From Tessaracoccus oleiagri (GTDB taxonomy: Bacteria > Actinomycetota > Actinomycetes > Propionibacteriales > Propionibacteriaceae), in the NCBI RefSeq assembly GCF_900103275.1, contig NZ_FNGP01000001.1, positions 434,001 to 498,000 on the forward strand: a stretch of 64,000 nt of DNA, written 5' to 3'. The notes below the pieces were generated by a model. The model made no database searches, was not told the DNA's origin, and was given only the letters and a program-made list of their open reading frames with translations. Positions 4,353 to 26,396 of the stretch are shown piece after piece. Made by a program: the position numbers and the translations under genes. The stretch's first letter is position 1, and each line of letters opens with the position of its first letter.

Positions 4353-4372
4353 CCCAGCAAGGAGTGTTCGAC

Positions 4373-6924: not shown

Positions 6925-6956
6925 CAATCGCCACCCCTTGAAGAAAGAGCGTGACC

Positions 6957-7961: not shown

Positions 7962-8171
7962 CCGGTAATGGAAACGGGGCGCCCGCCTCTGCTTCAGCCT
8001 GCAGCTGGTGAAGGGCCTTCGATGGCCGAGTCGGCTGGCTCGTGACGAACGCTGAGCGTAACTTGGTTACCTCTTGAAGCCGCTCGCCACTCCTCCGAGC
8101 TGGGCCGCCGTGGAAGCGCGGCATGAGGGCGACTGCCTAGCGGCTACGCAGACGCGCGATGCAGTGCCTCT

Positions 8172-9311
8172 CTAGACGAGATGTGCTCGTAGGGCGAGAA
8201 CCGATGCTCCCACAGCGGCGGCATCACGCATGTTCAGGGAGATCCCGACTTGGATTGAGTGGGCATTGCGCGAGGCGAAGGCGTGGCCGAGTTTGGAGGA
8301 GATGGCCTGTACATAGAGCGAAGCCACTTCTCCAAACCCGGGGCCAGCCAGAACGACGTGGTCGAGATCCAGCACGTTGGCTAGGGATAGCACTGCGGTG
8401 CCCATGGTGTCGGCTGATGCTTGAATCACCGAAAGCGCTTCCTGATTGTCAGCCAGCGCGGCGGAGCCTATGCGGTGGTAGGACTGTCGACGTCCGGTGA
8501 GGGCTTCGTAGGCCGATTCCACAGCATGCGGGCCAGCTACGGCTTCCAGACACCCTCTTCCTCCGCATCGGCACATCGGCCCGCCGCGGTCGACGGCGAG
8601 ATGCCCAAATTCTCCGGCGTTACCGCTGGCTCCGGCAACTGGTTGACCGTCGAGAATGAGACCGGCACCGATGCCGACGTCCATATAAATCAGGCCCAGC
8701 GCTCGGCTGTTTCGGGCTGCGCCACTCCAGAACTCTCCCGCCGCGGCAGCACTGGCATCGTGGTGCAGGGAGGTCGGAATCCCCGTGGCAGTTGCGAACT
8801 CATCGCGAAGCGGGAACCCCTGCCAGCCGGGGAGATTCCGGGCTGCGTCGAGAGTGCCTCCCGTGTGGTCGAGGGGCCCAGGAGCGGTGACGCCGGCTGC
8901 GACGAGTGCAGCCGGGTCGATTCCCAAGGACGAGACGAGGCCGTGGGCGGCTTCTGCCATTTTCGCCACGGTTTCATGTGGGTCAGCGGTGAGGGAGGAC
9001 CGGGTGCGCGAACGGCCAACGACTGCTCCCCATAGGTTCGAGACGGCCAGAGCGATGGAGCCCCTAGTGAATTGAACACCTAGTCCGTAGCGCGCCTCAT
9101 GGTTGATCTCCAGAAGGACCCGGCGCTTGCCGCCCGTCGATTCGCTGTGCCCGACTTCGGTGACAAGCCCATCGGAGAGGAGCGTGCGGACGATGTATGT
9201 GATTGAGGCCGGTGTCAGCCCCGTCAGTTGCGCGAGTTCTACGCGACTGGTGGGCGCGTGATTACGCACCGCCTCAAGAACTACGGCTCTGTTGTTGGGC
9301 TGGTCAGACAT
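8172..9311 (-). CDS. ROK-family transcriptional regulator
   Basis: 379 residues; ATG at 9309-9311 with GGAGGTG upstream on the minus strand. The N-terminal winged helix-turn-helix (VELAQLTGLTPASITYIVRTLL) is followed by a sugar-kinase-like ROK domain. The zinc site is visible as HLAVDRGGPMCRCGGRGCLE (about residues 246-265), with the CxCGxxGC cysteines, and GIGAGLILDGQ resembles the ROK nucleotide/sugar-binding loop. The family includes NagC, Mlc and XylR repressors. It is divergent from the LacI-like gene at 9407, with about 95 bases between them, and probably controls the sugar transporter at 10.3-13.5 kb. Composition is less GC-rich than the flanking operons. Confidence 0.88.
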   Translation of the reverse strand: MSDQPNNRAVVLEAVRNHAPTSRVELAQLTGLTPASITYIVRTLLSDGLVTEVGHSESTGGKRRVLLEINHEARYGLGVQFTRGSIALAVSNLWGAVVGRSRTRSSLTADPHETVAKMAEAAHGLVSSLGIDPAALVAAGVTAPGPLDHTGGTLDAARNLPGWQGFPLRDEFATATGIPTSLHHDASAAAAGEFWSGAARNSRALGLIYMDVGIGAGLILDGQPVAGASGNAGEFGHLAVDRGGPMCRCGGRGCLEAVAGPHAVESAYEALTGRRQSYHRIGSAALADNQEALSVIQASADTMGTAVLSLANVLDLDHVVLAGPGFGEVASLYVQAISSKLGHAFASRNAHSIQVGISLNMRDAAAVGASVLALRAHLV

Positions 9312-10301: not shown

Positions 10302-11600
10302 TCAGCCCTGCATTGCGTCGTCGAGACGTTCGAGGATCTCGCCGGGCGCCAATGTGCCGTTGAAGAGTTCCTGCATCGAGATCATGAACTCCTCCTTGAC
10401 TTGCGTGTTCGGCCATGTCTGGTCCGGGTACACAGTGGCGCGCTTCGATTCCTGTGCCGCGATGAGCGGCTGGTTGATCGCGTCCGCCTCGTACTCCGGG
10501 GCTGGGAGAGCCGGGGTGCTGTTGGAGGCGACAGCGAACAGCGCTTGCCCCTCTGGGGAGGCGGCGTACTCCAAGAAGGCACGGGCTGCCTCGGGATTCT
10601 CGGCCTTGGCGTTCATGGCGAAGTTCAGGCCCGGAGCAACGGGCGTGTAGGTCTCGTCGGCATTGTTGGTGGCGGGGAAGGGCGCCAAGGAGAAGGTGGT
10701 TCCCTCAGGCGCGTACTGCTGCGCGCCAGAAACCGCCTGGCTGACATGGACGGCGCCGAGAGCATCTCCACGCGCCACCAAGGTCATCTGATCGTCATAG
10801 CCGGTGCCGTTGGCGCCTTCATTGAAGCACTGCGCGGCTCGCATTTCGCCGATCTTCACGAGGGCTTCCGACCACCCCGAATCGGCGAACGTGGCGCTAC
10901 CGGCGATCTGCTTCTCGGTGAACTCAGGGTCCGGCCCGTACACGAGCGTGGCAGTCAGGGCATAGGGCAGCAACTGTGCCGTCCAAGCGTCCTTGTTGCC
11001 GAGTGCGTAGGCTACCTTGCCTGCCGATTGAGCGTCAGCGCACAATTCCAGCACCTGATCCCAAGTGTTGGGAGGGGTGGCACCGAGTTCTTGCATGGCT
11101 TGGTCGTTGTAGATGGCGCCAATCCCACCGATCGTGGCCGGCAATGAGTGCAGGGCTCCGTCGCGGCCTGAGAGGCCGCGGAGATTCTCTGGGACGAGAT
11201 CGGCCCACTCTTCGCCGCTGAGGTCCGCAACTAGCCCGTCGGCCGCAACAGAGAGGATGGCCATGGAATCACCTCCGCCGGGCCAGACCTTGAAGATGTC
11301 GGGAGCCGTTCCCGCCGAGAGCTGGGTTCGGATTTGCTGGATGTACGCGGAGTCCTGCTCAATGAAAACCGGCTCTACTCGGTATTCGGGGTGGGCCTCC
11401 TGAAAGCCGTCCAGCAGTTGCTGGGCTGCAGCCTGCTGACCGCTGGCGAATGTGAGTACCGTCTGGCTTGTCCCGTCCGGGGCAGGCGATCCGCTCGAGC
11501 CTTGAGCGGGACTCTCGGTGGAGCAGCCACCGAGCGCCAGCGCCACCGCTACAAGCACCACGGCGCCAGCGGGACGCCCCGTGCGATGCAGTTGATTCAT
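10302..11600 (-). CDS. Sugar ABC transporter substrate-binding lipoprotein (family 1)
   Basis: 432 residues from the ATG at 11598-11600, chosen because GGAG lies 6 bases upstream; a start ten codons earlier is less likely. The lipoprotein signal ends in LGGC (Cys about residue 25), followed by a Ser/Pro-rich tether. The family-1 (MalE-like) landmarks include LTFASGQQAA, a central IYNDQAM, and the C-terminal NPEAARAFLEYAASPEGQ typical of extracellular solute-binding proteins. It is first by function but last by position in the minus-strand permease cluster: the order of transcription is permease (13467), permease (12494), binding protein. Ligand unknown, probably an oligosaccharide or glycoside. 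Confidence 0.88.
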   Translation of the reverse strand: MNQLHRTGRPAGAVVLVAVALALGGCSTESPAQGSSGSPAPDGTSQTVLTFASGQQAAAQQLLDGFQEAHPEYRVEPVFIEQDSAYIQQIRTQLSAGTAPDIFKVWPGGGDSMAILSVAADGLVADLSGEEWADLVPENLRGLSGRDGALHSLPATIGGIGAIYNDQAMQELGATPPNTWDQVLELCADAQSAGKVAYALGNKDAWTAQLLPYALTATLVYGPDPEFTEKQIAGSATFADSGWSEALVKIGEMRAAQCFNEGANGTGYDDQMTLVARGDALGAVHVSQAVSGAQQYAPEGTTFSLAPFPATNNADETYTPVAPGLNFAMNAKAENPEAARAFLEYAASPEGQALFAVASNSTPALPAPEYEADAINQPLIAAQESKRATVYPDQTWPNTQVKEEFMISMQELFNGTLAPGEILERLDDAMQG

Positions 11601-11672
11601 TTTCTTCTCCTTTGGTTTCCGTTGCGCCATTGCTTGGCTTGGGAGGCGTGATGAATGAGGGGCTGCGAATCG

Positions 11673-12494
11673 CTACCCCTTGAGCCCTCCAGCGAAGCCC
11701 TTGATGATGTGCTTCTGGAGGGCGAAGTAGAGGGCCAGGATCGGAATCGCGGTGATGACGAGCGCGGCGAATACCAAGGGCCACTGGGAGACGTACTGCC
11801 CGACGAAGTTGTAGATCGCCACTGGTGCGGTGGTGTTACCGCTGCCGGACAGGTAGAGCAGCGGCGTGAAGAACTCGTTCCATACCCCCACGGAGTTGAG
11901 TACGACGATTGTTCCCGTCACGGCACGAAGCAGCGGGAACACGACGCTGACGAATGTGCGCCCGGGCCCGCATCCATCTACGAGGGCCGCCTCTTCGTAA
12001 TCGAGGGGAAGTTCGCGCAAGAAGGTGGTGTAGAGGAAGATCGAGAAGGGCAACTGACTGCCTATGTTGATGAGAATGAGAGACCATAGGCTGCCCAGGA
12101 GCTCTAGATCACGCATCGTCGTGTAGAGGGGCAGCAGGCCGAGCTGGCTTGGAATGAGCAAGCCGGCTAGGAAGCCGTAGAAGGTGAGACGGGACCATCC
12201 CCGGGCTGTTCTGGCCAGGGGATAGGATGCGAACGCGGCCAGGACTACGACGCCGAGGACGCTGAGCACGGCCACGATGAAACTGTTCGCGATGGCGGCG
12301 CCCAGCGCCCCTTGCTGCCATGCGGCCACAAGATTCTCCAGCGTCGGGGGCAAATCCAGTTCCAGGGCAGAGGTCTGTGACCCACGTGGCTTGAACGCAA
12401 CGTTGACCAATGCGTAGAGAGGGACGAGGAAGGCGACCGCCAGCACGATCAACCCCAGTTCTTGGACCGCGGACTTCCAGGTGTAGCGATGCAT
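11673..12494 (-). CDS. Carbohydrate ABC transporter permease (MalG type)
   Basis: 273 residues, six predicted membrane helices. The EAA loop reads EEAALVDGCGPGRTFVSVVF (about residues 184-203), matching the EAAxxDGAxxxxxFxxixlP coupling helix. The C-terminus FALQKHIIKGFAGGLKG is the classic MalG-type end, R/K-x-(I/F)-x-x-G-x-x-x-G-x-(V/L)-K-G. The start is one base from the stop of the upstream permease, so the two are translated together and should form a heterodimer. No ATPase gene is present in this cluster; these systems commonly use a shared MsiK-like ATPase encoded elsewhere (family knowledge). Confidence 0.9.
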   Translation of the reverse strand: MHRYTWKSAVQELGLIVLAVAFLVPLYALVNVAFKPRGSQTSALELDLPPTLENLVAAWQQGALGAAIANSFIVAVLSVLGVVVLAAFASYPLARTARGWSRLTFYGFLAGLLIPSQLGLLPLYTTMRDLELLGSLWSLILINIGSQLPFSIFLYTTFLRELPLDYEEAALVDGCGPGRTFVSVVFPLLRAVTGTIVVLNSVGVWNEFFTPLLYLSGSGNTTAPVAIYNFVGQYVSQWPLVFAALVITAIPILALYFALQKHIIKGFAGGLKG

Positions 12495-12495
12495 G

Positions 12496-13467
12496 TCAAT
12501 CGGCCTTCCGCAACGTCAACCGGTACTGGATGGTGGCGAGGATGGCGATGACCATCGTCATGACGACGGCCAGCGCTATAGAGACGGGGTACTCCCCAGA
12601 ACTGAAGGCGTTCTTGTAGATGGTCGTGGAAATCGTCTCGGTGGCGATCCCTGGGCCACCTCCGGTCATTGCCATCACTTGGTCGAACTGCTTCAGCCCG
12701 CCGATGAGGGAGAGCATTAGATTGATGACAACCGCCCCGTTGAGGAGCGGAAGCACCACGTTCCAGAATCTGCGCCATGCTCCGGCACCGTCGATCGTGG
12801 CAGCCTCGAGGACGTCTTCGGGAATGGCTTGGAGGCCGGCGAGGAAGATCACCATGGAGTAGCCCGAGAACTGCCAAATGATGGACAAGCAGATGGCGTA
12901 GAGGGCCGTCGCCGGATCACCGAGCCAATCGCGCGTCCAACCCTCAAGGCCCAAGGAGATCAACGCCTGGTTCACGGCACCCCGGGGAGCCAGGAGGTAA
13001 CTCCAGATGTAACCAGAGACCAACGGGGTGAGGACGACTGGCGCGAAGAAGACCACGCGCAACACGAACCGCGACCGGAACACCGAGTTCAGCGCGAGGG
13101 CAAGAAGCAGGCCGATCACGTTCTGGACGATGGTTACTACCGCAGCCAGGACGACGGTGTTCCGGAGGGCAGCCAGCGCCCGCCTATCTGTCACTACCTC
13201 GACGAAATTGGCGATGCCAACGAAGTCCCACTCTGCCGACATCCCGTTCCAGTCGGTGAAGGAGTAGACCGCTCCCCGCAAGCTCGGCACGACGACTACG
13301 AACAAGTACATCGCCGCTGCCGGCACGACGAACCACCAGGGTGCACGCAACCCCGCGGGCCGTCGCGCGCGACGAACCGACCCCCGAGTTGGGCCTCGAT
13401 CCGCCTCCCCGGGAACCGCCACTCGTTGGGCCTCATCCAACCCGAGCACGGAGCCGCCAAGTTGCAT
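12496..13467 (-). CDS. Sugar ABC transporter permease (MalF type)
   Basis: 323 residues; ATG at 13465-13467 preceded by AAGGAG on the minus strand. The long positively charged N-terminus (RGSVRRARRPAGLRAP) precedes the first helix, then six membrane segments. The EAA motif is EAATIDGAGAWRRFWNVVLP. Partner of the MalG-type permease directly downstream. The promoter lies in the 136-base gap shared with the divergent nucleoside-hydrolase-like gene. Confidence 0.9.
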   Translation of the reverse strand: MQLGGSVLGLDEAQRVAVPGEADRGPTRGSVRRARRPAGLRAPWWFVVPAAAMYLFVVVVPSLRGAVYSFTDWNGMSAEWDFVGIANFVEVVTDRRALAALRNTVVLAAVVTIVQNVIGLLLALALNSVFRSRFVLRVVFFAPVVLTPLVSGYIWSYLLAPRGAVNQALISLGLEGWTRDWLGDPATALYAICLSIIWQFSGYSMVIFLAGLQAIPEDVLEAATIDGAGAWRRFWNVVLPLLNGAVVINLMLSLIGGLKQFDQVMAMTGGGPGIATETISTTIYKNAFSSGEYPVSIALAVVMTMVIAILATIQYRLTLRKAD

Positions 13468-13523
13468 GTTAGGACTCCTTCGTCACCTGCGGGCCCGCCT
13501 CGGACTCGCAACAAGCTGACAGT

Positions 13524-13560
13524 AACTGAAGACAGGAACTAATTTCAACTGCTTAACTAA
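13524..13560. promoter_or_regulatory. Possible regulator-binding region with AACT repeats between permease and nucleoside-hydrolase-like gene
   Basis: In the 136-base divergent gap, AACTAA occurs at 13537-13542 and 13555-13560, exactly 18 bases apart, with related AACTGA (13524) and CAACTG (13546) copies. Read on the other strand this gives repeated TTAGTT blocks, similar to half-sites known for some ROK repressors such as XylR. The gap is also AT-richer than its surroundings, as expected of a promoter. This is a weak, pattern-only call. Confidence 0.3.
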
Positions 13561-13603
13561 GTTCGTCCAAGGGACTACAACACCCACACGAAGGGACCAG
13601 ATC

Positions 13604-14467
13604 ATGACCGATCGCGCCCGAACCCGCCTTCTCGTCAGCACAGACGCCAAGAACGAGGCTGACGACCAGTTCGCCATAGTGCACGCACTCCTGTCCCCCA
13701 CACTCGACGTGCGAGGCATCCTCCCTACGCATTTCGGAACAGTGGGTTCTCTTGAGGCCAGCCGCCAAGAAGTCGACCTGCTCCTCGACCTCCTCGACAT
13801 GCAGGGCGAAGTAGCTGTCGCCAACGGAGCGCACCAACGGCTGGCTGACGAGAAACAGGCCGTAGAAAGCGCTGCCGCCCACAAGATCATCGAGGAGTCC
13901 CACCACGCCGGAACTCTCTACGTTGCGGCCCTCGGGCCCCTCACCGACGTGGCCAGCGCGCTCTTGCTCGACCCAACACTTGCCAGCCGCGACGTCGTGG
14001 TCGTCTGGATCGGCGGCCCCCCATACGATGACGTCGAGGCTGTGTACTGGCCGGAGTACAACCTCTCCAATGATGTCGCCGCGGCGAACGTCGTCTTCTC
14101 GTCCGGCATTTCCGTGTGGCAGGTGCCAATGGACGTCTACACGCTAGTAGGCGTCGGCTACGAGGAGCTTGAAGAACGCGTCCGACCCAGGGGCCGAACG
14201 GGCAACTACCTCGTGCAGCAGCTCCTCGAGTGGAACAACAAGAACATGAGCCGCGCTGTCGACTTCCGGTCCCTAGGCGACTCGCCCGCCATCAGCCTAG
14301 TCCTGAATCCCTTCGGGGCCGTCTGGCGCCGACGCCTCGCTCCGAGGTTCGCCGCGGACGGTTCAGTCGTCGAGGCAGTTGCCAAGCACACCATCCGCGT
14401 CTGCGTAAGAGTCGACTCCAGGTACCTCTTGGAGGACTTCTTCGCCAAACTCAAGCGGGCTCCTTGA
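13604..14467 (+). CDS. Nucleoside hydrolase-like protein with variant metal-binding loop
   Basis: 287 residues from ATG 13604 (AAGGGA upstream). The fold signature of inosine-uridine-preferring nucleoside hydrolases is present: an N-terminal Asp-rich loop, a central AALGPLTDVASALLLDP (TxLGPLTNxAxAL in the family) and WIGGPP in place of MGG. The N-terminal loop reads STDAKNEADDQFAI instead of the canonical DTDxGxDDxxA, with two extra residues between the first Asp and the DD pair; this places it in a divergent subgroup. Divergent from the sugar permease, so it probably processes the imported ligand, which could be a nucleoside, a ribosyl compound or a glycoside. No signal peptide is visible. 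Substrate uncertain. Confidence 0.7.
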   Translation: MTDRARTRLLVSTDAKNEADDQFAIVHALLSPTLDVRGILPTHFGTVGSLEASRQEVDLLLDLLDMQGEVAVANGAHQRLADEKQAVESAAAHKIIEESHHAGTLYVAALGPLTDVASALLLDPTLASRDVVVVWIGGPPYDDVEAVYWPEYNLSNDVAAANVVFSSGISVWQVPMDVYTLVGVGYEELEERVRPRGRTGNYLVQQLLEWNNKNMSRAVDFRSLGDSPAISLVLNPFGAVWRRRLAPRFAADGSVVEAVAKHTIRVCVRVDSRYLLEDFFAKLKRAP

Positions 14468-15713: not shown

Positions 15714-15768
15714 AAGCGCTTGCACATGACCCGACCTGCGGCGTAACGTCAAATGCGCAAGCGCTTGC
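15714..15768. promoter_or_regulatory. Two LacI-type operators upstream of the beta-glucan operon
   Basis: AAGCGCTT occurs at 15714-15721 and, within the perfect 12-bp palindrome GCAAGCGCTTGC, at 15757-15768. The centres are 45 bases apart. The central CG and flanking A/T pattern are typical of LacI-family operators. TTGCAC (15720-15725) and TAACGT (15744-15749) between them could serve as -35 and -10, so repressor binding would cover the promoter. The second site starts 27 bases before the GTG at 15795. Confidence 0.65.
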
Positions 15769-15794
15769 ATGACATGTCGAGGAGGACTGGGGAA

Positions 15795-16808
15795 GTGGCA
15801 ACGATCTACGAGGTCGCCAAGGAGGCGGGCGTCTCCATCTCGACGGTGTCGCGCGCCCTCCGCAACGATCCCCGCATCTCCGAGCGCACCCGCGGGCGCG
15901 TCCGGGAGGCCGCGGAGTCGTTGGACTACCTCCCGAGTGCCGCGGCCCAGACCCTCGCCGGCTCCAGCGTGCGCTCGCTCGGCATGGTCCTCCCCCACAT
16001 CAAGGGCACCTACTACGCCGAGCTGGCCGTCGGCTTCGAGCGGCGCGCCAGCGAACTCAACTGCTCCGCCGTCCTGCTGCTCGTCGGCGAGGACTCGGAC
16101 CAGCGCCCGGCGGTCCGCCGCCTCGCCGGCGCCGTCGACGGCCTGGCGTTCATGGCCCGGAGCGCGGCCACCGACGAGCTGGTCACCGAGGTGGCGAAGC
16201 GCCGGCCGACGGTCACGGTCGCCCGCGCCCAACTGCCCGGCCTCCCCGCCATCTACGCCGAGTCCGAGGACTCCGCCGCCGAGCTCACCCGGCACCTCGT
16301 CGACATCGGCCGCACCCGGTTCGCGTTCGTCGGCCCCATCGACCACGGCTCGGACATCGCCGCCCGCTACGACGGGTTCGCCCGGGCGCTGAGGGAGGCC
16401 GGCTTCGACGTGCCGCCCGCGATCGAGGTCGAGCTGGAGGAGGGCCCTGGCCTCCAGTTGGCGAGGGACCTCGTCGCCCAGGGCATGCCCTACGACGCGA
16501 TCGTCTGCGGCAACGACGAGATCGCGGTGGCCATCGTCTACGAGCTCCAGGAGCTCGGGGTCGACGTGCCGGCCGCCGTCTCAGTCGTCGGCTGGGACGA
16601 CATCCGGGTCTCGCGCTACCTCCGCCCCGGGCTCACGACCGTCCGCCAGCCGGTCGCCGAACTGGGCGCGATGGCGGCCGAACACCTCCACAACCTGTTG
16701 TCGGGAACCGCGGTGCCCGACTGCACCGCCCTTCCCACCGCCTTGGTGCACCGCGAATCCTGCGGCTGCGGCGAGGACCACCAACCACCGTCCACCACTA
16801 GGGAATGA
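15795..16808 (+). CDS. LacI-family regulator of the beta-glucan utilisation operon
   Basis: 337 residues. GTG 15795 is chosen because GAGGAGG (15779-15785) precedes it and the helix-turn-helix starts at once; the in-frame ATG at 15753 lies upstream of an operator. DNA-binding domain: ATIYEVAKEAGVSISTVSRA, hinge PSAAAQTLAGSSVRS. Effector domain: LGMVLPHIKGTYYAELAVGF, then VSVVGWDDIRVSRYLRPGLT. The C-terminus has a CGCG cysteine pair. First gene of the operon, 7 bases before the binding-protein gene, and likely autorepressing through the AAGCGCTT sites. Inducer would be a glucan oligosaccharide (inference). Confidence 0.9.
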   Translation: MATIYEVAKEAGVSISTVSRALRNDPRISERTRGRVREAAESLDYLPSAAAQTLAGSSVRSLGMVLPHIKGTYYAELAVGFERRASELNCSAVLLLVGEDSDQRPAVRRLAGAVDGLAFMARSAATDELVTEVAKRRPTVTVARAQLPGLPAIYAESEDSAAELTRHLVDIGRTRFAFVGPIDHGSDIAARYDGFARALREAGFDVPPAIEVELEEGPGLQLARDLVAQGMPYDAIVCGNDEIAVAIVYELQELGVDVPAAVSVVGWDDIRVSRYLRPGLTTVRQPVAELGAMAAEHLHNLLSGTAVPDCTALPTALVHRESCGCGEDHQPPSTTRE

Positions 16809-16815
16809 GGAAGAA

Positions 16816-18102
16816 ATGAAGAGCAAGAGCCGTGCCCTCGTGGCATTGACGGCCGCGTTCGCCATGACCGCCGCGCTCAGCGCCTGCGGCCGCGACGGCG
16901 GCGACTCCGGGGACACCGGGGACCAGAGCGACGTCGCACCCATCGCCGACGGGCCCGCCACCGGCACCCTCGAGGTGTGGGCCATGGGCGCGGAGGGCGA
17001 GAAGCTCCCCGAGCTCGTCAAGAAGTTCCAGGAGGAGAACCCCGACGTGACCGTCAACGTCACGCCGGTCCCCTGGGAGTCCGCGCACGACAAGTTCACC
17101 TCCGCGATCGCGGCGGGCACCACCCCTGACGTCGCGCAGGTCGGCACCACGTGGATGGGCGAGTTCGTCGGCCTCGACGCCCTCGACCCGACCCCTGAGC
17201 TGATCGACGTCGACAAGTTCTTCACGGGCGGCCAGGAAACCACCGTCGTCGACGGCGTCTCCTACGCGGTCCCGTGGTACGTCGAGACCCGCCTCGTCTA
17301 CTACCGCACGGACATCGCCGAGCAGGCCGGCATCACCGAGCCCGCGACGGACTGGGAGGGCCTGAAGGAGATGGCCAAGAAGATGCAGTCCGACGGCGGC
17401 GCCGAGTGGGGCATCAGCCTCCAGCCCGGTGGCACCGGCTCCTGGCAGACCGTCCTCCCGCTGATGTGGTCCAACGGCGGTGAGATCGTGAACGACGACA
17501 TGACGGAGTTCACGTTCGACACCGAGGAGAACGTCGAGGCGCTCGAGTACTACAAGTCGTTCTTCGACGAGGGCATCGCCAACAAGTCGCCGGCCCAGGG
17601 CACCACGGAGGCCGACTTCGCCTCCGGCAAGGTGCCGATGTTCATCTCCGGCCCCTGGATGATGGCCGCGGTCGAGGCCGCCGGCGGCGAGGGCTTCGCC
17701 GACAAGTACGACGTCATGGAGATGCCCGAGGCCGAGAGCAGCGCGTCGTTCATCGGCGGCGCCAACCTCGCCGTGTTCAAGAACACCGAGAACCGCGACG
17801 CGGCGTGGAAGCTCGTCGACTTCCTCACCCAGGAGGAGACCCAGGTGGAGTGGTACGACCTGACCACCGACCTGCCGTCCGTGCAGTCCGCGTGGGAGGC
17901 CGAGGCGCTCTCGTCCGACGAGAAGCTCGCCAAGTTCGGCAGCCAGCTCGAGAACGCGTTCGCGCCGCCGTCGATCTCGACGTGGGAGCAGATCGCGACC
18001 GCCTTCGACTCCCAGGTGGAGCGCGTCACCAAGACCGGGTCCGACCCTGCGGAGGCCCTGGCCGCGGTGCAGCAGGAGGCCACGTCCATCGGGATGGGCT
18101 AA
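16816..18102 (+). CDS. Extracellular sugar-binding lipoprotein, candidate sophoro-oligosaccharide-binding protein
   Basis: 428 residues, ATG 16816. Lipoprotein signal ending LSAC (Cys about residue 25), then a Gly/Asp-rich tether. Family-1 solute-binding landmarks: LEVWAMGAEGEKLPELVKKF, VPWESAHDKF, AAGTTPDVAQVGTTWMGEF, and the C-terminal PSISTWEQIATAFDSQVERV. Aromatic residues (W, Y) are frequent in the mid-region, as expected for stacking on glucose units. It heads the transport part of an operon whose enzymes fit beta-1,2-glucan breakdown. In Listeria innocua a binding protein of this class sits beside a homologous phosphorylase and GH3 enzyme (established knowledge); the ligand here is inferred from this context. 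Confidence 0.88.
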   Translation: MKSKSRALVALTAAFAMTAALSACGRDGGDSGDTGDQSDVAPIADGPATGTLEVWAMGAEGEKLPELVKKFQEENPDVTVNVTPVPWESAHDKFTSAIAAGTTPDVAQVGTTWMGEFVGLDALDPTPELIDVDKFFTGGQETTVVDGVSYAVPWYVETRLVYYRTDIAEQAGITEPATDWEGLKEMAKKMQSDGGAEWGISLQPGGTGSWQTVLPLMWSNGGEIVNDDMTEFTFDTEENVEALEYYKSFFDEGIANKSPAQGTTEADFASGKVPMFISGPWMMAAVEAAGGEGFADKYDVMEMPEAESSASFIGGANLAVFKNTENRDAAWKLVDFLTQEETQVEWYDLTTDLPSVQSAWEAEALSSDEKLAKFGSQLENAFAPPSISTWEQIATAFDSQVERVTKTGSDPAEALAAVQQEATSIGMG

Positions 18103-18106
18103 CCCC

Positions 18107-19039
18107 ATGTCCACCGCCGTGGCGACGCAGCCCGCCACCCGCAAGCCTCGCTCGCGTTCCGGCAAACGGAACGCGGCCGAGGCCCGGGCGGGCCTGCTGC
18201 TCGCGCTCCCGTTCGTGGTGCTGTTCACCGTGTTCACGCTGTGGCCGGTGCTGCAGTCGATGTTCATGAGCTTCACCGACACCCGCATCACCGACATCCG
18301 CACGCCCTTCGCGGTGAACTTCGTCGGCCTCGACAACTACGCCAAGGCGCTCGGCGACCCGGTGTTCCGGCGGGCGGCGCTCAACACCGGCATCTTCGTG
18401 GTCATCGGCGTCCCGCTGACGATCGTGGCGGGCCTCGCGGCGGCGGTGGCGCTCGACAAGGGCATCACGAAGTTCCGCAGCGTGTTCCGAATGGGCTTCT
18501 ACACGCCCGTGATCACCAGCATCGTCGCCGTCGCGGTGGTGTGGCGGTTCCTGCTCCAGCCCGACAGCGGCCTGGTCAACACCGTGCTCGGCTGGGTCGG
18601 CATCGACGGCCCGAACTGGCTCGGCGACACCCGCACGTCGCTGCTGTCCCTGATCATCATGGCCGTCTGGCGCAACTTCGGCACCGGCATGATCATCTTC
18701 CTCGCCGGCCTGCAGGCCGTGCCGTGGCAGTTGCACGAGGCCGCCGCCCTCGACGGCGCCACGTCCTGGCAGCGGTTCTGGCACATCACCCTGCCGGTGC
18801 TGCGCCCGACGATGCTGTTCGTGATGGTCACCACGACGATCGGCTACCTGCAGTTCTTCGAGGAGCCGTTCGTCATGACCCAGGGCGGCCCGCTCAACAG
18901 CACGCTGTCCGCGTCGATGTACACCTACCAGCAGTTCGGCTTCGGCAACTACGGCGTCGCCGGCGCGATGGCGTACCTGACCTTCCTGGTGATCGTGATC
19001 GTCACGATCGTCCAGTTCCGGCTGACGAGGGAGAAGTGA
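18107..19039 (+). CDS. Sugar ABC transporter permease (MalF type)
   Basis: 310 residues from ATG 18107, 4 bases after the binding-protein stop. Positively charged N-terminus (RKPRSRSGKRNAAEARAG), six hydrophobic segments, and the coupling motif EAAALDGATSWQRFWHITLP at about residues 212-231. Forms a heterodimer with the next permease. As in the other family-1 system in this window there is no ATPase gene in the operon, implying a shared ATPase encoded elsewhere. Confidence 0.92.
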   Translation: MSTAVATQPATRKPRSRSGKRNAAEARAGLLLALPFVVLFTVFTLWPVLQSMFMSFTDTRITDIRTPFAVNFVGLDNYAKALGDPVFRRAALNTGIFVVIGVPLTIVAGLAAAVALDKGITKFRSVFRMGFYTPVITSIVAVAVVWRFLLQPDSGLVNTVLGWVGIDGPNWLGDTRTSLLSLIIMAVWRNFGTGMIIFLAGLQAVPWQLHEAAALDGATSWQRFWHITLPVLRPTMLFVMVTTTIGYLQFFEEPFVMTQGGPLNSTLSASMYTYQQFGFGNYGVAGAMAYLTFLVIVIVTIVQFRLTREK

Positions 19040-19860
19040 TGGAGCGTTCACGCAGCCGCTGGTGGCTCTACATCGTCCTCACGATCCTCTTCCTGCTCGT
19101 GATCACCCCGTTCCTGTGGATGATCCTCGGCAGCCTCAAGACCCAGGGCGAGCTCCTGCAGGTCCCGCCGACGTGGATCCCCGAGAACCCCACGCTCGAC
19201 AACTTCTCCCGCCTCTTCGACCGGCTCAGTTTCGGCCGCTACTTCTTCAACTCGACGGTCGTCGCGCTCGTGGTGACGATCTCCAACCTGCTGTTCTGCT
19301 CCATGCTCGGCTACGCGCTCGCGCACCTGAACTTCCCCGGCAAGCGGATCATCTTCGGCGCCGTCCTCGGCACCCTGATGATCCCCGGCCTCGTCACCTT
19401 CATCCCGCAGTTCGTGCTGGTGGTCAACCTCGGCCTCGCCAACACGCTGCCCGCGCTGTTCCTGCCGTTCCTCGTCGCCCCGTTCGGGGTGTTCCTCATG
19501 CGCCAGTTCTTCCTCGGCATGCCGCGCGACATGCTCGAGGCCGGCCGGATCGACGGCGCCGGCGAGCTGGGCATCTTCTTCCGCCTGTTCCTGCCGCTGG
19601 CGGGGCCGGCGCTCGCGACGCTCGGGATCCTCACCTTCCTGGCGTCGTGGAACAACTTCCTGTGGCCGCTCGTCGTGGCGTCCACCGAACGCACCTACAC
19701 GCTGCCCGTCGCGCTGGCCCTGGTCTCCACCGGCCAGAACCAGACCGACTACGGGCTTCTGCTGGCCGGCGCGAGCGTCGTCGTCCTGCCCATCATCCTC
19801 GTGTTCCTCTTCTTCCAGAGGTACTTCATCGAGGGCATCGCCACCACCGGAATCAAGTGA
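19039..19860 (+). CDS. Carbohydrate ABC transporter permease (MalG type)
   Basis: 273 residues; ATG 19039 shares one base with the preceding stop (TGATG), so translation is coupled. GAGGGAG lies upstream. Six membrane segments; EAA-type coupling helix EAGRIDGAGELGIFFRLFLP; C-terminal FQRYFIEGIATTGIK is the characteristic MalG-type tail. Second half of the importer channel. Confidence 0.92.
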   Translation: MERSRSRWWLYIVLTILFLLVITPFLWMILGSLKTQGELLQVPPTWIPENPTLDNFSRLFDRLSFGRYFFNSTVVALVVTISNLLFCSMLGYALAHLNFPGKRIIFGAVLGTLMIPGLVTFIPQFVLVVNLGLANTLPALFLPFLVAPFGVFLMRQFFLGMPRDMLEAGRIDGAGELGIFFRLFLPLAGPALATLGILTFLASWNNFLWPLVVASTERTYTLPVALALVSTGQNQTDYGLLLAGASVVVLPIILVFLFFQRYFIEGIATTGIK

Positions 19861-19891
19861 CATCCACCCACCTCCGACAGGAGCCACTGCC

Positions 19892-21412
19892 ATGACCAAC
19901 CTCACCCGACGAACCCTGCTCGGCGCCGCCGCCGGCGCCGGCGCACTGGCCGCCGCCGGATCCCACGCACACGCCAACCCCGTCGGCCGCGGGCGCCCCG
20001 GGGACCACGACGAGACGCTGCTCACCTGGGCGCGCGACACCTGGAAGTCGCTCGTCGCCATGACCGACCCCAACACCGGGCTCGTGGCCGACAACATCGA
20101 CGGCGACCTCACCAACCGCAGCGGCTACACGTCGCCGACGAACATCGGCGGCCTGCTGTGGAGCACGATCGTCGCCCGCGACCTGCGCATCATCAACCCC
20201 GGCGAGGCGCGCAACATCATCGCCCGCACCCTGCGCACCCTGCAGGGCATGGAGCGCCACGATGCGAGCGGCATGTACTTCAACTGGTACGACGAGGCCA
20301 CCGGCGACGTCCTGCGGGTGTGGCCCGAGGACGGCAACCCCGTCGTCCCGTTCGTGTCGTCCGTCGACATGGGCTGGCTGGGGGCCGCGCTCTACGTCGT
20401 CGCCCAAGCGGACCCGTCCAACCGTAAGGCGGCGCTGCAGCTGTTCAACGCGATGCGCTGGGACATCTTCTACGACAAGGACTTCCGCGCCCCGGCCGGC
20501 GCCAACTACGGCGGCTTCTGGATCGAGAACCCCGAGCGGCCCGGCACCGCCCTGCTGCCCCCGACGATCGGCGAGGGCCCCGACCTCTGGTACCACGTCC
20601 AGCACCACTACGACACCGCGATCTCCGAGGCCCGGATGGTCACCTACCTCGGCATCTTCCGTGAGCAGATCCCGCCGATCGCCTACTTCGGCACCTACCG
20701 GACGTTCCCGCCGGACTGGACCTGGCAGGAGATGATCCCGGTCGGTGAGTGGCGCGAGTACCTCGGCTTCCCCGTCTATGAGGGCGCCTACACCTACCGC
20801 GGCTTCCGCGTCGTGCCCGGCTGGGGCGGCTCGATGTTCGAGGAGCTCATGCCGGACATCTTCGTGCCGGAGGCGACGTGGGGCCCGCGCAGCTGGGGCC
20901 GCAACCACCCGCTGCACGTCCGCGCGCAGCGTGAGCACGGCCTCGACGACGCGCAGTACGGCTACTGGGGCTTCTCGCCCTCGTCCAACCCGGCCGGCGG
21001 CTATCGCGAGTACGGCGTCGACGCGCTCGGCATGAACCCCGAGGGCTACTTCTCGGACCAGGAGCGCACCGACTACCACGCCGACAACCCGCCCACCACC
21101 TACGGCGACGGGGTCGTCACCCCGCATGCCGCGTTCCTCGGCATGATGTACGAGCCCGAGGAGGCGACGACGAACCTGCGGAACCTGCAGGCCGACTTCG
21201 ACTCCTACGGCCCCGGCGGCTTCTACGACGCGGTCGCGGTCCGGAGCGGTCAGGTGGCCCGGCGGCACCTGTCGCTCGACCAGTCGATGATCATGGGCGC
21301 GCTCGGCAACGTGCTCCTCAATGGCGGCCTGCGCCGGTGGTTCGCCACCGCCGAGGTGGAGGCCCAGCTGCGCCCGTTGCTCGCGCTCGAAGAGTTCAAC
21401 GCGGGCGAGTGA
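19892..21412 (+). CDS. Tat-exported glycoamylase-domain protein, candidate endo-beta-1,2-glucanase (GH144-like)
   Basis: 506 residues. ATG 19892 follows GGAG. The N-terminus TRRTLLGAAAGAGALAAAG is a twin-arginine signal with an Ala-rich cleavage region. The mature protein is an alpha/alpha-barrel type enzyme. The segment YWGFSPSSNPAGGYREYGVD followed by a DGVVTPHAAF stretch matches the glycoamylase (PF10091-type) core found in GH144 endo-beta-1,2-glucanases, and conserved acidic residues fall in FNWYDEATGD and EDGNPVVPFVSSVDMG. It would cut a glucan outside the membrane, feeding the adjacent importer. GH assignment is from motif memory, and some related proteins have other or unknown activities. 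Confidence 0.7.
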   Translation: MTNLTRRTLLGAAAGAGALAAAGSHAHANPVGRGRPGDHDETLLTWARDTWKSLVAMTDPNTGLVADNIDGDLTNRSGYTSPTNIGGLLWSTIVARDLRIINPGEARNIIARTLRTLQGMERHDASGMYFNWYDEATGDVLRVWPEDGNPVVPFVSSVDMGWLGAALYVVAQADPSNRKAALQLFNAMRWDIFYDKDFRAPAGANYGGFWIENPERPGTALLPPTIGEGPDLWYHVQHHYDTAISEARMVTYLGIFREQIPPIAYFGTYRTFPPDWTWQEMIPVGEWREYLGFPVYEGAYTYRGFRVVPGWGGSMFEELMPDIFVPEATWGPRSWGRNHPLHVRAQREHGLDDAQYGYWGFSPSSNPAGGYREYGVDALGMNPEGYFSDQERTDYHADNPPTTYGDGVVTPHAAFLGMMYEPEEATTNLRNLQADFDSYGPGGFYDAVAVRSGQVARRHLSLDQSMIMGALGNVLLNGGLRRWFATAEVEAQLRPLLALEEFNAGE

Positions 21413-21414
21413 CG

Positions 21415-23340
21415 ATGCGCGCCGAGTTCCTCACCACCACCGACGGCGTCACCTTCCGTGACCTCAACCACAACGGCCGCCTCGACCCGTTCGAGGACCC
21501 GCGGCTGAGCGTGGCGGAGCGGGTCGACGACCTGCTCCCCCGGCTGTCGGTGGAGGAGCTCGTCGGGCTCATGTTCCACACGGTGATCGAGGCCGGGGAC
21601 GACGGGCAGCTGCTCGACGGCCCCGGCCGGATCGCCAAGTCCGGGAGCCGTGACGTCGTCGTCGGCAAGCGGATGAACCACTTCAACGTCCACGCGCTCA
21701 CCAGCGCGCGACAGGCGGCGTCGTGGGCCAACCGGCTCCAGGAGCTGGCCTGCGAGACCCCGCACTCCATCCCCGTCACCATCTCCACCGACCCCCGGCA
21801 CGCGGCCGCCGAGAACGCGGGCACGAGCTGGGCGTCGAACTTCTTCTCCCAATGGCCGGATCCGATGGGCCTGGCGGCGCTCGACGACGTCGGGTTGGTG
21901 TGGGAGTTCGCCGACATCGTGCGGCGCGAGTACGTCGCCGTCGGCATCCGCGCCGCGCTGCACCCCACCGCGGACCTCGCCACCGAGCCCCGCTGGGCAC
22001 GGCAGCGCGAGACGTTCGGCGCCGACCACCGGCTCGTCGCGCGCCTCACCGAGGCCGCCATCCACGGGCTGCAGGGCGACGAACTCGGGCCCCAGTCGGT
22101 GAGCGCCACCACCAAGCACTTCCCCGGCGCCGGCCCCCAGGCCGACGGCGAGGACGCCCACTTCCCCTACGGCCGAGACCAGGTCTACCCGGGCGGACGC
22201 TTCGACGAGCACCTGCTGCCGTTCAAGACCGCGATCGCCGCCGGCACCGCCGCGATGATGCCCTACTACGGGCGGCCCGTCGGCCTCGACCTCGGCATGG
22301 GCCACATCGAGGAGGTCGGCTTCGGCTACAACAAGCAGCTCCTCACCGGCCTGCTGCGCCGCAGGCTCGGCTACCAGGGCGTGATCCTCAGCGACTGGGA
22401 GCTCGTCAACGACAACCTCGTCGGCGACCAGGTCCTCCCTGCCCGTGCCTGGGGCGTCGAGCACCTCTCCCCCGCCGAGCGGATGCTCAAGCTCCTCGAC
22501 GCGGGCATCGACCAGTTCGGCGGCGAGGAGTGCACCCACCTGCTCCTCGAGCTCGTCGCCGACGGCTACGTCTCGCGCGACCGCCTCGAGGAGTCCGCGC
22601 GCCGGCTGCTGCGCGTGAAGTTCCAGCTCGGGTTGTTCGACAACCCCTACGTCGACGAGGAAGCCGCCCCCGCCCTCGTCGGCACTCCCCGGGCGACGGA
22701 GCTGGGCCTGCGGACCCAGGCCCGCTCCGTCGTCGTCCTCGTGGATTCGCCCACCCGGTCCCTGAGGAGCGACGAACACGCCACCCCCCGGTCCCTGAGG
22801 AGCGACGAAGTCGCGTCTCGAAGGGCCGGGACCGCCGCCCTCCCCCTCGCCCCGGGCACCCGGGTCTGGCTCGACGAGGTGCTGCCGGAGGCGGTCAGCG
22901 GCGGGCTCGTCGTCGTCGACCGACCGGAGGACGCCGACGTCGGCCTGGTCCGGTTGAACGCGCCGTTCGAGCCGAGGGACGACCTGTTCCTGGAGTCGTG
23001 GTTCCACCAGGGCAGCCTCGACTTCCCGCCGGGCCTGAAGCACCGGCTCGCGCGCATCCCCTGCCCGCTCATCATCGACGTGAAGGCCGACCGACCGGCG
23101 GTGCTCACCCCGCTCCTCGAGGTGGCCGACGTGCTGACCGTCACGTTCGGCGTGAGCGACACCGCCTGGATCCAGGCCATCACCGGCCAGGTGCCGCCCG
23201 AGGGGCGGCTGCCCGTCGCGTTCCCCGGCTCAATGGACGCGGTGCGCGCCTCGATGCCGGACGTCGCGGGCGACATCGACCCACTGTTCCCGGCGGGCTA
23301 CTCCGCAGCCGTGCCCGCCGATCCCCTACCGACGAGGTGA
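21415..23340 (+). CDS. GH3-family beta-glucosidase, cytoplasmic, carrying an in-frame repeat insertion
   Basis: 641 residues from ATG 21415 (2 bases after the previous stop; GTG 21409 is an alternative). No signal peptide. GH3 landmarks: TEPRWARQRETFGAD (family EPRWGRxxExxGED), KHFPG with the conserved Lys-His, and the nucleophile region GVILSDWEL with Asp near residue 325. The C-terminal alpha/beta sandwich follows, interrupted near residues 446-475 by a Ser/Arg-rich insertion encoded by repeat DNA (22754-22833). In Listeria innocua a GH3 enzyme of the equivalent locus acts on sophoro-oligosaccharides; by analogy this enzyme would release glucose from imported oligosaccharides. The specificity is inferred. 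Confidence 0.87.
   Translation: MRAEFLTTTDGVTFRDLNHNGRLDPFEDPRLSVAERVDDLLPRLSVEELVGLMFHTVIEAGDDGQLLDGPGRIAKSGSRDVVVGKRMNHFNVHALTSARQAASWANRLQELACETPHSIPVTISTDPRHAAAENAGTSWASNFFSQWPDPMGLAALDDVGLVWEFADIVRREYVAVGIRAALHPTADLATEPRWARQRETFGADHRLVARLTEAAIHGLQGDELGPQSVSATTKHFPGAGPQADGEDAHFPYGRDQVYPGGRFDEHLLPFKTAIAAGTAAMMPYYGRPVGLDLGMGHIEEVGFGYNKQLLTGLLRRRLGYQGVILSDWELVNDNLVGDQVLPARAWGVEHLSPAERMLKLLDAGIDQFGGEECTHLLLELVADGYVSRDRLEESARRLLRVKFQLGLFDNPYVDEEAAPALVGTPRATELGLRTQARSVVVLVDSPTRSLRSDEHATPRSLRSDEVASRRAGTAALPLAPGTRVWLDEVLPEAVSGGLVVVDRPEDADVGLVRLNAPFEPRDDLFLESWFHQGSLDFPPGLKHRLARIPCPLIIDVKADRPAVLTPLLEVADVLTVTFGVSDTAWIQAITGQVPPEGRLPVAFPGSMDAVRASMPDVAGDIDPLFPAGYSAAVPADPLPTR
22754..22833. repeat. Dispersed palindromic repeat inserted inside the GH3 coding sequence
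   Basis: A 23-bp unit, CCCGGTCCCTGAGGAGCGAC plus GAA, occurs at 22754-22776 and again at 22787-22809. The second copy continues through GTCGCGTCTCGAAGGGCCGGGACC (22810-22833), whose end is an imperfect inverse of the beginning; GCGAC-GAA-GTCGC forms an inner hairpin at 22802-22814. The first copy is thus a 5' fragment. Repeats of this CCTGAG...TCGAAGGG style are usually extragenic in actinobacteria, so a location inside a gene is unusual. The reading frame is kept open. Confidence 0.75.
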
Positions 23341-23342
23341 TC

Positions 23343-26300
23343 ATGACCGAGCTGACGATACGACCGACGTTCACCAGTGCCGGGGCGCTCGCCCGGCTCG
23401 ACGCCGGCGACCTCAGCCTCCTGCAGTACCCCGCCTCCGAGCTCGAGCCCGGCCCCCATCAGGTCTGGCTGCGGTGGCGCTCCCCCGACGGGCACCGCCC
23501 CCTCGGCCTGACCGGGCCGGCGGGCGGCGGCACCGTCGTGCGGGCCGGCGACGGCATCGTGCTGCGCGGCCGCGAGGACGAAGTCGAGTGGGAGCTGTGG
23601 TGGGACCAGCCCGCGGGCGGCGGTCGGTTTGGCTGGGGGCTGCGGGTGGTCAACCACGGCGAGCACCCCGTCGAGCTGGACGCGGTCTGGACAGTCGACG
23701 CCGCGCTGACGCCTTGGGACGCGCTGCGCCGCAATGAGTTCTACGTCGCGCAGTACCTCGACCTCACGCCCATCTCCGACGGCGACCGCCTGCTGATCGC
23801 GGTGCGGCAGAACATGCCCGGCGACGCGAACCCCTGGCTCGCGCTGGGCGCGACCCGCCGCGTGGTGGGTTGGTGCACCGACGCGCTGCAGCTCCGCCCC
23901 GACGTCCCCGGGACGGGCCTCGACCTGAGCGCCGACCTCCCCGCCGAGCGCCTCCAGCACGAGCACACGCTCGCCGGCCTGCAGACCGAGCCGTGGCGGC
24001 TCGCGCCGGGCGAGGAGGGGTTCGTCGGGTACCGCGGCGTCGTCGTGGCGGACCACCCCGAAGCCTCGTCCGACGAGGACGCCGAACGGGTCCGCGGCGC
24101 GCTGGCCGACGGCTGGGCCGAGGCGGCACCGTCGGTCTCCGGCGACGCGGCCCCGGCCGAGCCGACGCTGTTCAGCCCGCCGCGCTTCGCGCACGGCGAG
24201 GACCTGCACGAGTCCGAGTTCCTGCGGCTGGTGGGCGGTGGGGGTTCCGTCGAGCGCGGGCCCGACGGGGAGGCCTGGTCGTACAGCGTGGGCGGGGCGC
24301 ACGTCGTCGCGGCCGCGAAGGAACGCGCGGTGCTCCGCCCCCACGGGCACATCGTCCGCGCCTCGGCCGGGGCGCGCCCGCAGGACCCGACCGCCGCGGT
24401 GACCGCCTGGATGGGCGGCACCTTCGCGTCGCAGCTCACGCTCGGCAACGCGTCCGGTGAGCCGCTGCTCTCCATCCGGCGCAGCTACCTCGGCCTCGTG
24501 CAGACCGACGGCGTGCGGCTGTTCGTGCGCGACGGCGATGAGGGTTGGCGGCTGCTCGGCCAGCCCAGCGCCTGGGCCGCGGACGACTCGTCGGCCACGT
24601 GGTGGTACCGCCTCGGCGAGCGGACCGTGCAGGTGGAGACCCGGCTGACGCTCGCGCGCCTGACGGTGCGGGTCGATGTCGGCGGGGCGCCGCTCGACGT
24701 GCTGGTCTCGATCTCCACGCCGGACGACTGGCGCACCGAGGAACACCCCGCCACGAGCGGTTTCGCCCTCGAGATCCCCGTCGGCGGGCCCGACGCGCCG
24801 GCCGCCGACGCCCCCGTGCTGCGGCTGCACGGCGACGACCCGACCTCCGAGCGCCTCGACGCGTTCCTGCCGTGGCTCGTCCACAACGCGCACGTCCACT
24901 ACCAGGCGCCGCGCGGGCTGGAGCAGTTCACCGGCGGCGCGTGGGGCACCCGCGACGTCTGCCAGGGCCCGGTGGGGCTGCTCGTCGCCACCGGCCGGCT
25001 GCGCGTGGTGCGCGACGTGCTGCTCGCCGTCTTCGCGGGGCAGCAGGACGACGGCGACTGGCCGCAGTGGTTCCAGTACCTGGCCGCCGACCGCGGCCCC
25101 GGGCACCGCGAGAGCCACGGCGACGTCGTCTACTGGCCGCTCCTCGCGCTCGGCGAGTACCTGCAGATGACCGGCGATCTCGGGATCCTCGACGAGGAGG
25201 TCGGCTGGGTCGGGCAGGCCGAACTGCTGCCCGCGACCCCGCTGCGCGCGCACGTCGAGGCGGCCGTCGACCACCTGCTCTCGGCCCGCAGCGCCGACCC
25301 CCGGCTGCCCGCCTACGGCCACGGCGACTGGAACGACTCGCTCCAGCCCGCGAACCCCGACCTCGCCCGGCAGATGGTCTCCACCTGGACCGCCGAGCTC
25401 GAGGTCAAGGCGCTCAGCACGCTGGCCGACGGACTGGGTTCCGCCGACGCCGAGATGGCGGAGCGGCTCCGCGCGATCGCCGCGGAGACCGAGGCCGCCA
25501 TCCGCGACTCGCTCCTCATCGACGGGGAGCTCTGCGGCTACGCGGTGGTCGCCGACGGGCGGGTCGAGCCGATCGTGCACCCGCGCGACGCGCGCACCGG
25601 GCTGCGACACGGGTCGCTGCAGGTGATCCACGCGATCGCCGACGAGCTGCTCACGCCGGAGGAGGCGGAGTCGCACGTGCGGATCGTCGACGAGCACCTC
25701 GACGGCCCCACCGGCATCTACCTGTTCGACCGCCCGGTGGACTACCACGGCGGCGAGACGCACACGTTCCTGCGGGCCGAGGCCGCGTCGTTCTGGGGCC
25801 GCGAGATCGGGCTCATGTACACGCACGCGCACCTGCGCTGGATCGAGGCGCTGCTGCGGCTCGGGCTCGCCGACCGCGCCTGGCGGGCCCTCGACCTCGT
25901 CATCCCCGACGGGCTCACCGCGGCCGTGCCGGGTGCCCTGCCCAGGCAGTCGAACACCTACTTCTCCTCCGTGGACGCCGCCTTCCGCGACCGCGCCGAC
26001 GCCGAGGCCCGGGCGGACAGGATGTTCGACCCCGAGTTCGGCTTCGAGGGCGGCTGGCGGGTCTACTCGTCGGGCCCCGGCCTGATCCTGCGGCTGGTGA
26101 CCGAGGGGTTCCTCGGGCTGCGTCAGGACGTCGGCGGTCTGCTTGTCGACCCGGTCCTGCCCGCCGGGCGCTACGAGGCGGTCGTGCCGCTGGGCGGCCT
26201 CCGGGTGAGGGCGAGGTACCACGTCGCCGCTCCCGGGCACGGGGTGCAGGGCGTCGAGGTCGATGGGGACGCGGTCGCCACCGAGCCGGTGCCGCGGCGC

Positions 26301-26396
26301 TACCGGGCTGGCGGGGTGCGGATCCCCGCCGACGTGTGGGCGGACCTCGTCGCCGGCCTCGAGGAGCTGATTCTCGACATTCGCGTCGGGGGCTGA
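23343..26396 (+). CDS. GH94 phosphorylase, candidate 1,2-beta-oligoglucan (sophoro-oligosaccharide) phosphorylase
   Basis: 1017 residues from ATG 23343, 2 bases after the GH3 stop. Long N-terminal beta-sandwich domains (to about residue 500) precede the alpha/alpha-barrel. GH94 signatures: AWGTRDVCQGPVGLL near residue 533 (family W-G-x-R-D-x-x-Q), YGHGDWNDSL near residue 660 (the GDWND motif carrying the general acid), and GLRHGSLQV/THTFLRAEAASFWGRE in the phosphate-site part. The size is nearer the 1,2-beta-oligoglucan phosphorylases (about 1100 residues) than cellobiose phosphorylases (about 820). With GH3 and the GH144-like protein this supports beta-1,2-glucan use: chains shortened with phosphate to give glucose 1-phosphate. 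Cytoplasmic; last gene of the operon. Confidence 0.85.
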   Translation: MTELTIRPTFTSAGALARLDAGDLSLLQYPASELEPGPHQVWLRWRSPDGHRPLGLTGPAGGGTVVRAGDGIVLRGREDEVEWELWWDQPAGGGRFGWGLRVVNHGEHPVELDAVWTVDAALTPWDALRRNEFYVAQYLDLTPISDGDRLLIAVRQNMPGDANPWLALGATRRVVGWCTDALQLRPDVPGTGLDLSADLPAERLQHEHTLAGLQTEPWRLAPGEEGFVGYRGVVVADHPEASSDEDAERVRGALADGWAEAAPSVSGDAAPAEPTLFSPPRFAHGEDLHESEFLRLVGGGGSVERGPDGEAWSYSVGGAHVVAAAKERAVLRPHGHIVRASAGARPQDPTAAVTAWMGGTFASQLTLGNASGEPLLSIRRSYLGLVQTDGVRLFVRDGDEGWRLLGQPSAWAADDSSATWWYRLGERTVQVETRLTLARLTVRVDVGGAPLDVLVSISTPDDWRTEEHPATSGFALEIPVGGPDAPAADAPVLRLHGDDPTSERLDAFLPWLVHNAHVHYQAPRGLEQFTGGAWGTRDVCQGPVGLLVATGRLRVVRDVLLAVFAGQQDDGDWPQWFQYLAADRGPGHRESHGDVVYWPLLALGEYLQMTGDLGILDEEVGWVGQAELLPATPLRAHVEAAVDHLLSARSADPRLPAYGHGDWNDSLQPANPDLARQMVSTWTAELEVKALSTLADGLGSADAEMAERLRAIAAETEAAIRDSLLIDGELCGYAVVADGRVEPIVHPRDARTGLRHGSLQVIHAIADELLTPEEAESHVRIVDEHLDGPTGIYLFDRPVDYHGGETHTFLRAEAASFWGREIGLMYTHAHLRWIEALLRLGLADRAWRALDLVIPDGLTAAVPGALPRQSNTYFSSVDAAFRDRADAEARADRMFDPEFGFEGGWRVYSSGPGLILRLVTEGFLGLRQDVGGLLVDPVLPAGRYEAVVPLGGLRVRARYHVAAPGHGVQGVEVDGDAVATEPVPRRYRAGGVRIPADVWADLVAGLEELILDIRVGG

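What the first reader, a model, noticed from the sequence alone, without database searches (positions are those of the whole stretch)
15714..26396. Complete candidate beta-1,2-glucan utilisation operon with Tat-exported endo-enzyme
Seen: LacI regulator, family-1 ABC importer, Tat-signal glycoamylase-domain protein, GH3 and a 1017-residue GH94 enzyme, all on one strand with spacings of -1 to 31 bases, behind two AAGCGCTT operators. Known: GH144 endo-beta-1,2-glucanases share the glycoamylase core, and in Listeria innocua a GH94 1,2-beta-oligoglucan phosphorylase, a GH3 enzyme and a binding protein form a sophoro-oligosaccharide locus. Inferred: this is an actinobacterial version that adds secreted depolymerisation. 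Both a phosphorylase and a hydrolase are encoded, which may split oligomer use by chain length.
Basis: partly seen in the sequence, partly recalled or inferred. Interest (0 to 1): 0.75.

Follow-up and report, generated by a model that had tools for sequence, protein, structure and literature searches.

The report
Complete bacterial beta-1,2-glucan eating operon
An actinobacterium carries one tight gene cluster that is predicted to cut the little-studied sugar polymer beta-1,2-glucan outside the cell, import the pieces and likely finish them inside with both a phosphate-splitting and a water-splitting enzyme; each part resembles a known kind, but no paper that I found describes this full set together.

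Summary
In detail: seven same-strand genes (15795-26396), gaps of -1 to 31 bases, behind two AAGCGCTT sites. The substrate guess is well supported; the family guess for the exported enzyme is not. That protein belongs with GH193, not GH144: it is about 46% identical over 437 residues to a protein in the same gene slot as Streptomyces griseus SGR_2427 (GH193), keeps the clan's acid (E246) and candidate base (D159), lacks the GH189 nucleophile and models as the clan's barrel. The GH94 protein has the SOGP-specific N-terminal domain and 16 of 17 LpSOGP contact residues checked. The GH3 protein is not close to the Listeria sophorose enzyme; its specificity is inferred. Among the closest named relatives the order importer-GH193-GH3 recurs (40 of 55 full-flank loci); GH94 is present in 12 of 55. 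In 20 loci from a class-wide sample GH3 of this type is found once, GH94 never. The operator core stands before lacI in 66 of 75 upstreams (background 1.6%). So it is a variant: the Listeria set plus a GH193 glucanase. Most novel lead: the cytosolic slot is swapped among GH3, GH94, GH1 and, in 23 loci, GH39.

The parts
15714..15721 (.). operator core 1 (AAGCGCTT), likely LacI site
   Evidence: core conserved upstream of lacI in 66 of 75 distinct relatives' stretches
15759..15766 (.). operator core 2 (CGCAAGCGCTTGCA; close relatives have TGCAAGCGCTTGCA), 28 bases before the likely GTG start of lacI
15795..16808 (+). LacI-family regulator, 337 aa from GTG
   Evidence: PF00356 and PF13377
16816..18102 (+). 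solute-binding protein (lipoprotein by inspection) of a family-1 ABC importer
   Evidence: PF01547; best solved relative 5ysb, Lin1841, E 8e-64, closely followed by 3uor at 1.4e-60
18107..19039 (+). ABC permease 1
   Evidence: PF00528
19039..19860 (+). ABC permease 2
   Evidence: PF00528
19892..21412 (+). GH193-type predicted endo-beta-1,2-glucanase with a twin-arginine signal by inspection, 506 aa; D159, E246
   Evidence: PF10091, likeness to SGR_2427-type proteins, residues, fold
21415..23340 (+). GH3 predicted beta-glucosidase, no signal peptide by inspection; SDW motif (starts at residue 328 of the 643-aa frame from 21409)
   Evidence: PF00933; 9ul7 E 1.8e-234
23343..26396 (+). [quoted passage not shown] catalytic acid D665
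   Evidence: PF21958, PF21250, PF17167; 5h3z E 1e-125; residues

Best explanation
This is an operon with its own LacI gene that is predicted to let the bacterium feed on beta-1,2-glucan: a likely exported GH193-type endoglucanase would cut the polymer, an ABC importer would take up the oligosaccharides, and inside the cell a GH94 phosphorylase would release glucose 1-phosphate from chains of three or more units while a GH3 enzyme would hydrolyse the remaining sophorose. Shown: gene content, order, domain families, catalytic and contact residues, recurrence of the gene order in the closest relatives and of the operator core. Inferred: export by Tat, importer substrate, GH3 specificity, LacI binding and induction, use of the MalK-type ATPase encoded elsewhere in the genome. 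No activity was tested.
Against: GH3 is distant from the Listeria sophorose enzyme (57.8 and 61.4 bits to Lin1840 chains against 782.9 to 9ul7). The SBP's lead for Lin1841 over 3uor is small (219.6 against 208.9 bits). The SkSGL sequence, the characterised GH193 enzyme, was not obtained. The endo model is weak at 359-406 and at 239-244, next to the acid. In 20 loci fetched from a class-wide sample, an SBP of this type is near the endo in 12, GH3 in 1 and GH94 in none, so the full cassette is not general. Whether the organism uses beta-1,2-glucan is unknown.
Confidence: 0.86

Rival explanations
1. The exported enzyme is a GH144 endo-beta-1,2-glucanase, in the same pathway.
For: Same Pfam family PF10091 and same fold.
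Against: GH144 chains score E 5.9e-4 (single sequence) and 1.4e-5 (profile) against 1.1e-11 and 2.5e-33 for GH189; full-length 46% identity to SGR_2427-type proteins.
Confidence: 0.03
2. The operon serves sophorose-bearing plant glycosides or another beta-1,2-linked oligosaccharide, and the polymer is secondary.
For: The GH3's nearest solved relative is a beta-glucosidase (9ul7) listed as Clavibacter michiganensis in a table of PMC13021860, and next come the SN243 chains; none of these is known to me as a beta-1,2-glucan enzyme.
Against: An exported endo-type clan enzyme and a phosphorylase of the kind that needs three or more units fit a polymer better; endo and SOGP co-occur in the genus.
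Confidence: 0.08
3. The exported enzyme is a transglycosylase that cyclises beta-1,2-glucan (GH189-like), and the operon recycles the glucan.
For: GH189 is the closest solved relative.
Against: The GH189 nucleophile and its histidine pair are missing: P363 or a variable residue, L462 and D463; only one PF10091 match in the genome, so no cyclic glucan synthase of its own is seen.
Confidence: 0.03

Closest known systems
Listeria innocua lin1838-lin1843 cluster (LacI, SOGP Lin1839, GH3 Lin1840, binding protein Lin1841, permeases)
   Same: same part list for regulation, import, phosphorolysis and hydrolysis (PMC3960220 and PMC4757417, passages)
   Different: no endoglucanase in that list; the GH3 here is far from Lin1840
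Streptomyces griseus SGR_2422-2427 cluster (esterase, ABC importer, GH1, GH193)
   Same: GH193 enzyme with a Lin1841-like importer in an actinobacterium (PMC12369401, abstract and passages)
   Different: finishing enzyme is GH1 and no GH94 is named; our endo is about 46% identical to proteins of that slot
GH193 SkSGL of Sanguibacter keddieii
   Same: clan GH-S; published acid E246 and base candidate D160 at nearly our numbers E246 and D159 (PMC12102758, sections)
LpSOGP / LiSOGP, GH94
   Same: domain set and substrate residues (PMC5309861, passages)
   Different: from an actinobacterium, and in an operon with an exported endoglucanase

Membership tests
GH193 (clan GH-S) | groups with characterised or assigned GH193 proteins | tested here: met
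   46.0-47.3% over 423-438 residues to four SGR_2427-type proteins recognised by gene order and a GH1 neighbour; SkSGL itself not obtained and no clan-wide tree built
GH193 (clan GH-S) | general acid Glu and candidate base Asp | tested here: met
   E246, D159, 129 of 129 aligned sequences, window included
GH193 (clan GH-S) | no GH189 nucleophile | tested here: met
   position found by counting from E1356
GH193 (clan GH-S) | (alpha/alpha)6 barrel of the clan | tested here: met
GH193 (clan GH-S) | endo-hydrolysis of beta-1,2-glucan with inversion | not testable with these tools
   needs purified protein
GH144 | closest in sequence to GH144 members | tested here: not met
   much weaker than GH189, and 46% to SGR_2427-type proteins
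SOGP subgroup of GH94 | extra N-terminal domain of SOGP homologs | tested here: met
   PF21958 E 1.9e-43
SOGP subgroup of GH94 | catalytic acid and sugar/phosphate contact residues of LpSOGP | tested here: met
   16 of 17 examined; the exception is G623, T here; chain numbers taken as paper numbers plus 1
SOGP subgroup of GH94 | phosphorolysis of beta-1,2-oligoglucans of DP 3 or more | not testable with these tools
   needs purified protein
Lin1840-type GH3 sophorosidase | close sequence relationship to Lin1840 | tested here: not met
   57.8 and 61.4 bits to Lin1840 chains against 782.9 to 9ul7
Lin1841-type binding protein | sophoro-oligosaccharide contact residues | not tested
   best PDB match but by a small margin; the structure paper is not held

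The most novel reading that the evidence does not exclude
Actinomycetota share one beta-1,2-glucan module, a LacI switch with a conserved TGYAAGCGCTTRCA-like operator, an importer and a GH193 glucanase, whose cytosolic finishing slot is swapped between GH3, GH94, GH1 and an unrecognised GH39 sophoro-oligosaccharide hydrolase; the Tessaracoccus-type operon fills the slot twice and so runs phosphorolysis and hydrolysis together.
Probability: 0.5. Interest if true: 0.5.

Novelty: new variant of a known kind. Interest (0 to 1): 0.38.

Why it matters
If true, it joins two half-pathways known from different bacteria into one route from polymer to glucose 1-phosphate and glucose, with ready test proteins. 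A match to the exported enzyme in 44 of 393 class-wide genomes suggests that beta-1,2-glucan is a common food for actinobacteria. The swapped slot names enzymes, GH39 above all, whose beta-1,2 activity can be tested directly.

Tried and rejected
GH144 for the exported enzyme was rejected on scores and likeness to SGR_2427-type proteins. Cyclising transglycosylase was rejected on the missing nucleophile. GH94 as a cellobiose or chitobiose phosphorylase was rejected: those chains score 3.7e-6 to 4.2e-4 against 1e-125 for LpSOGP; no laminaribiose phosphorylase chain is among the nine listed, so that one was not compared directly. A paper on 9ul7 was sought and only a table row was found. The printed record was searched in an open-licence library only. 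The repeat inside the GH3 gene was looked for in the window only. PMC12369401 names SGR_2425 as the binding protein in one place and SGR_2424-2425 as membrane subunits in another; my match of gene order takes SGR_2423 as the binding protein, while the GH1-GH193 neighbourhood holds either way.

Full report
What is there. The window comes from a 3.16 Mb genome of 11 contigs. Seven genes on the + strand run from 15795 to 26396: LacI, binding protein, two permeases, a PF10091 protein with a signal, GH3 and GH94. Gaps are 7, 4, -1, 31, 2 and 2 bases. Two AAGCGCTT cores lie before lacI.

The phosphorylase. GH94 carries SOGP_N, SOGP_2nd and the GH94 catalytic domain and matches LpSOGP (5h3z) at E 1e-125, next best 1.1e-11. 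Of 17 LpSOGP positions named in PMC5309861 (passages), 16 are identical: N131, Y134, Q528, A533, R537, D538, W663, D665 (acid), R811, R820, E821, Y826, H828, Y908, S909, S910; G623 is T here. It is the only SOGP_N match in the genome.

GH3 and importer. GH3 shows one Pfam domain. Its nearest solved relative is 9ul7 (782.9 bits), a beta-glucosidase listed as Clavibacter michiganensis in a table of PMC13021860 (passages); Lin1840 chains score 57.8 and 61.4 bits. Its action on sophorose is inferred from context. The binding protein's best solved match is Lin1841 (5ysb, 219.6 bits), with 3uor close behind (208.9). One OB_MalK match lies outside the window; that ATPase likely powers the importer.

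Conservation, for and against. A scan of named genomes gave 532 relatives among 573 pattern matches, the best 80 kept. Of the 55 with full flanks, 50 have the binding protein, 43 a GH3 of this type, 12 a GH94 match of at least 200 bits within about 10.5 kb, and 40 the order SBP-P1-P2-endo-GH3. GH94 follows GH3 in six (L033, L034, L035, L038, L041, L097), lies between endo and GH3 in one (L072), is present without a GH3 of this type in four (L058, L098, L102, L106) and at the locus edge in one (L050). In relatives of the genus it is also divergent and upstream (L131, L132, L133, and L135 where no endo was found). These are the closest relatives. In a class-wide sample the endo matches in 44 of 393 genomes; of the 20 loci that I took from it, 12 have the binding protein near, 1 the GH3, none GH94. 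Of 39 genomes of the window's genus, itself included, 10 have endo and SOGP, 1 only endo (60% complete), 1 only SOGP, 27 neither (counted by me, with the glucan-synthase match of G031 dropped; Fisher p 1.8e-7, which ignores phylogeny). Upstream of lacI the core AAGCGCTT is found in 66 of 75 distinct stretches that passed the filter, as TGCAAGCGCTTGCA in the close relatives and mostly as TGTAAGCGCTTACA-like forms elsewhere; 243 of 15000 random stretches of equal length in the same loci have it.

The swapped slot. In 23 of 129 loci with the endo (L105 and L154 are one genome), a match to one GH39 protein lies on the same strand at 17-289 bases from the endo match in 22 and at 1459 in one. Seven of the 23 were scanned and all seven match PF01229. 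Four were looked at by eye and show no signal peptide at their starts. The one aligned residue by residue (L105) keeps the Asn-Glu of the acid region and a Glu at the second catalytic region against a GH39 xylosidase. PMC12369401 names GH39 only in a reference title. A search for GH39 with sophorose, beta-1,2-glucan or GH193 showed 15 of 27 papers, none of whose titles or abstract openings tells of such an activity. This is a lead, not a result.

How it likely works. GH193 outside the cell would cut the polymer to oligomers; SkSGL makes mainly Sop4 at first (PMC12102758). The importer would take these up. SOGP would trim them to glucose 1-phosphate down to sophorose, on which Lin1839 does not act, and the GH3 would hydrolyse sophorose as Lin1840 does in Listeria (PMC4757417, passages). 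LacI would hold the operon off until a sophoro-oligosaccharide or sophorose arrives. All of this paragraph is inferred for this organism.

Verdict. Parts and pathway are of known kinds; the joining of GH193, SOGP and GH3 in one operon is a variant that I did not find described (open-licence library only). Interest is moderate.

Noticed in passing
L112:7054-8865, L105:11421-13247 and 21 further loci: A GH39 protein with an N-terminal extension sits beside the GH193-type gene, where GH3 sits in the window's relatives: a candidate new beta-1,2-glucoside specificity for GH39.
   Followed up: partly
22756-22821: Inside the GH3 gene a 21-base stretch (CGGTCCCTGAGGAGCGACGAA) occurs twice, 33 bases apart, and reads in frame as RSLRSDE twice between the two matched parts of the protein; 9ul7 has no counterpart there.
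   Followed up: partly
[quoted passage not shown]
   Followed up: partly
L132, L133, L136: The endo gene of some relatives of the genus gives two or three matches in different frames, decay or sequencing error.
   Followed up: no
G502, G573, G628: Two neighbouring GH193-type matches in each of these genomes.
   Followed up: no
L106, L108, L110 (Cellulosimicrobium): GH193-type proteins with about 100 extra residues at the C-terminus and the SkSGL spacing of 86 between base and acid.
   Followed up: no
10302-14467: A second family-1 ABC importer on the - strand (10302-13467), divergent from a nucleoside-hydrolase-like gene (13604-14467).
   Followed up: no
3327-8440: A ribose-type ABC set followed by its own LacI (6951-7961), with the third AAGCGCTT of the window at 8433 beyond it.
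   Followed up: no
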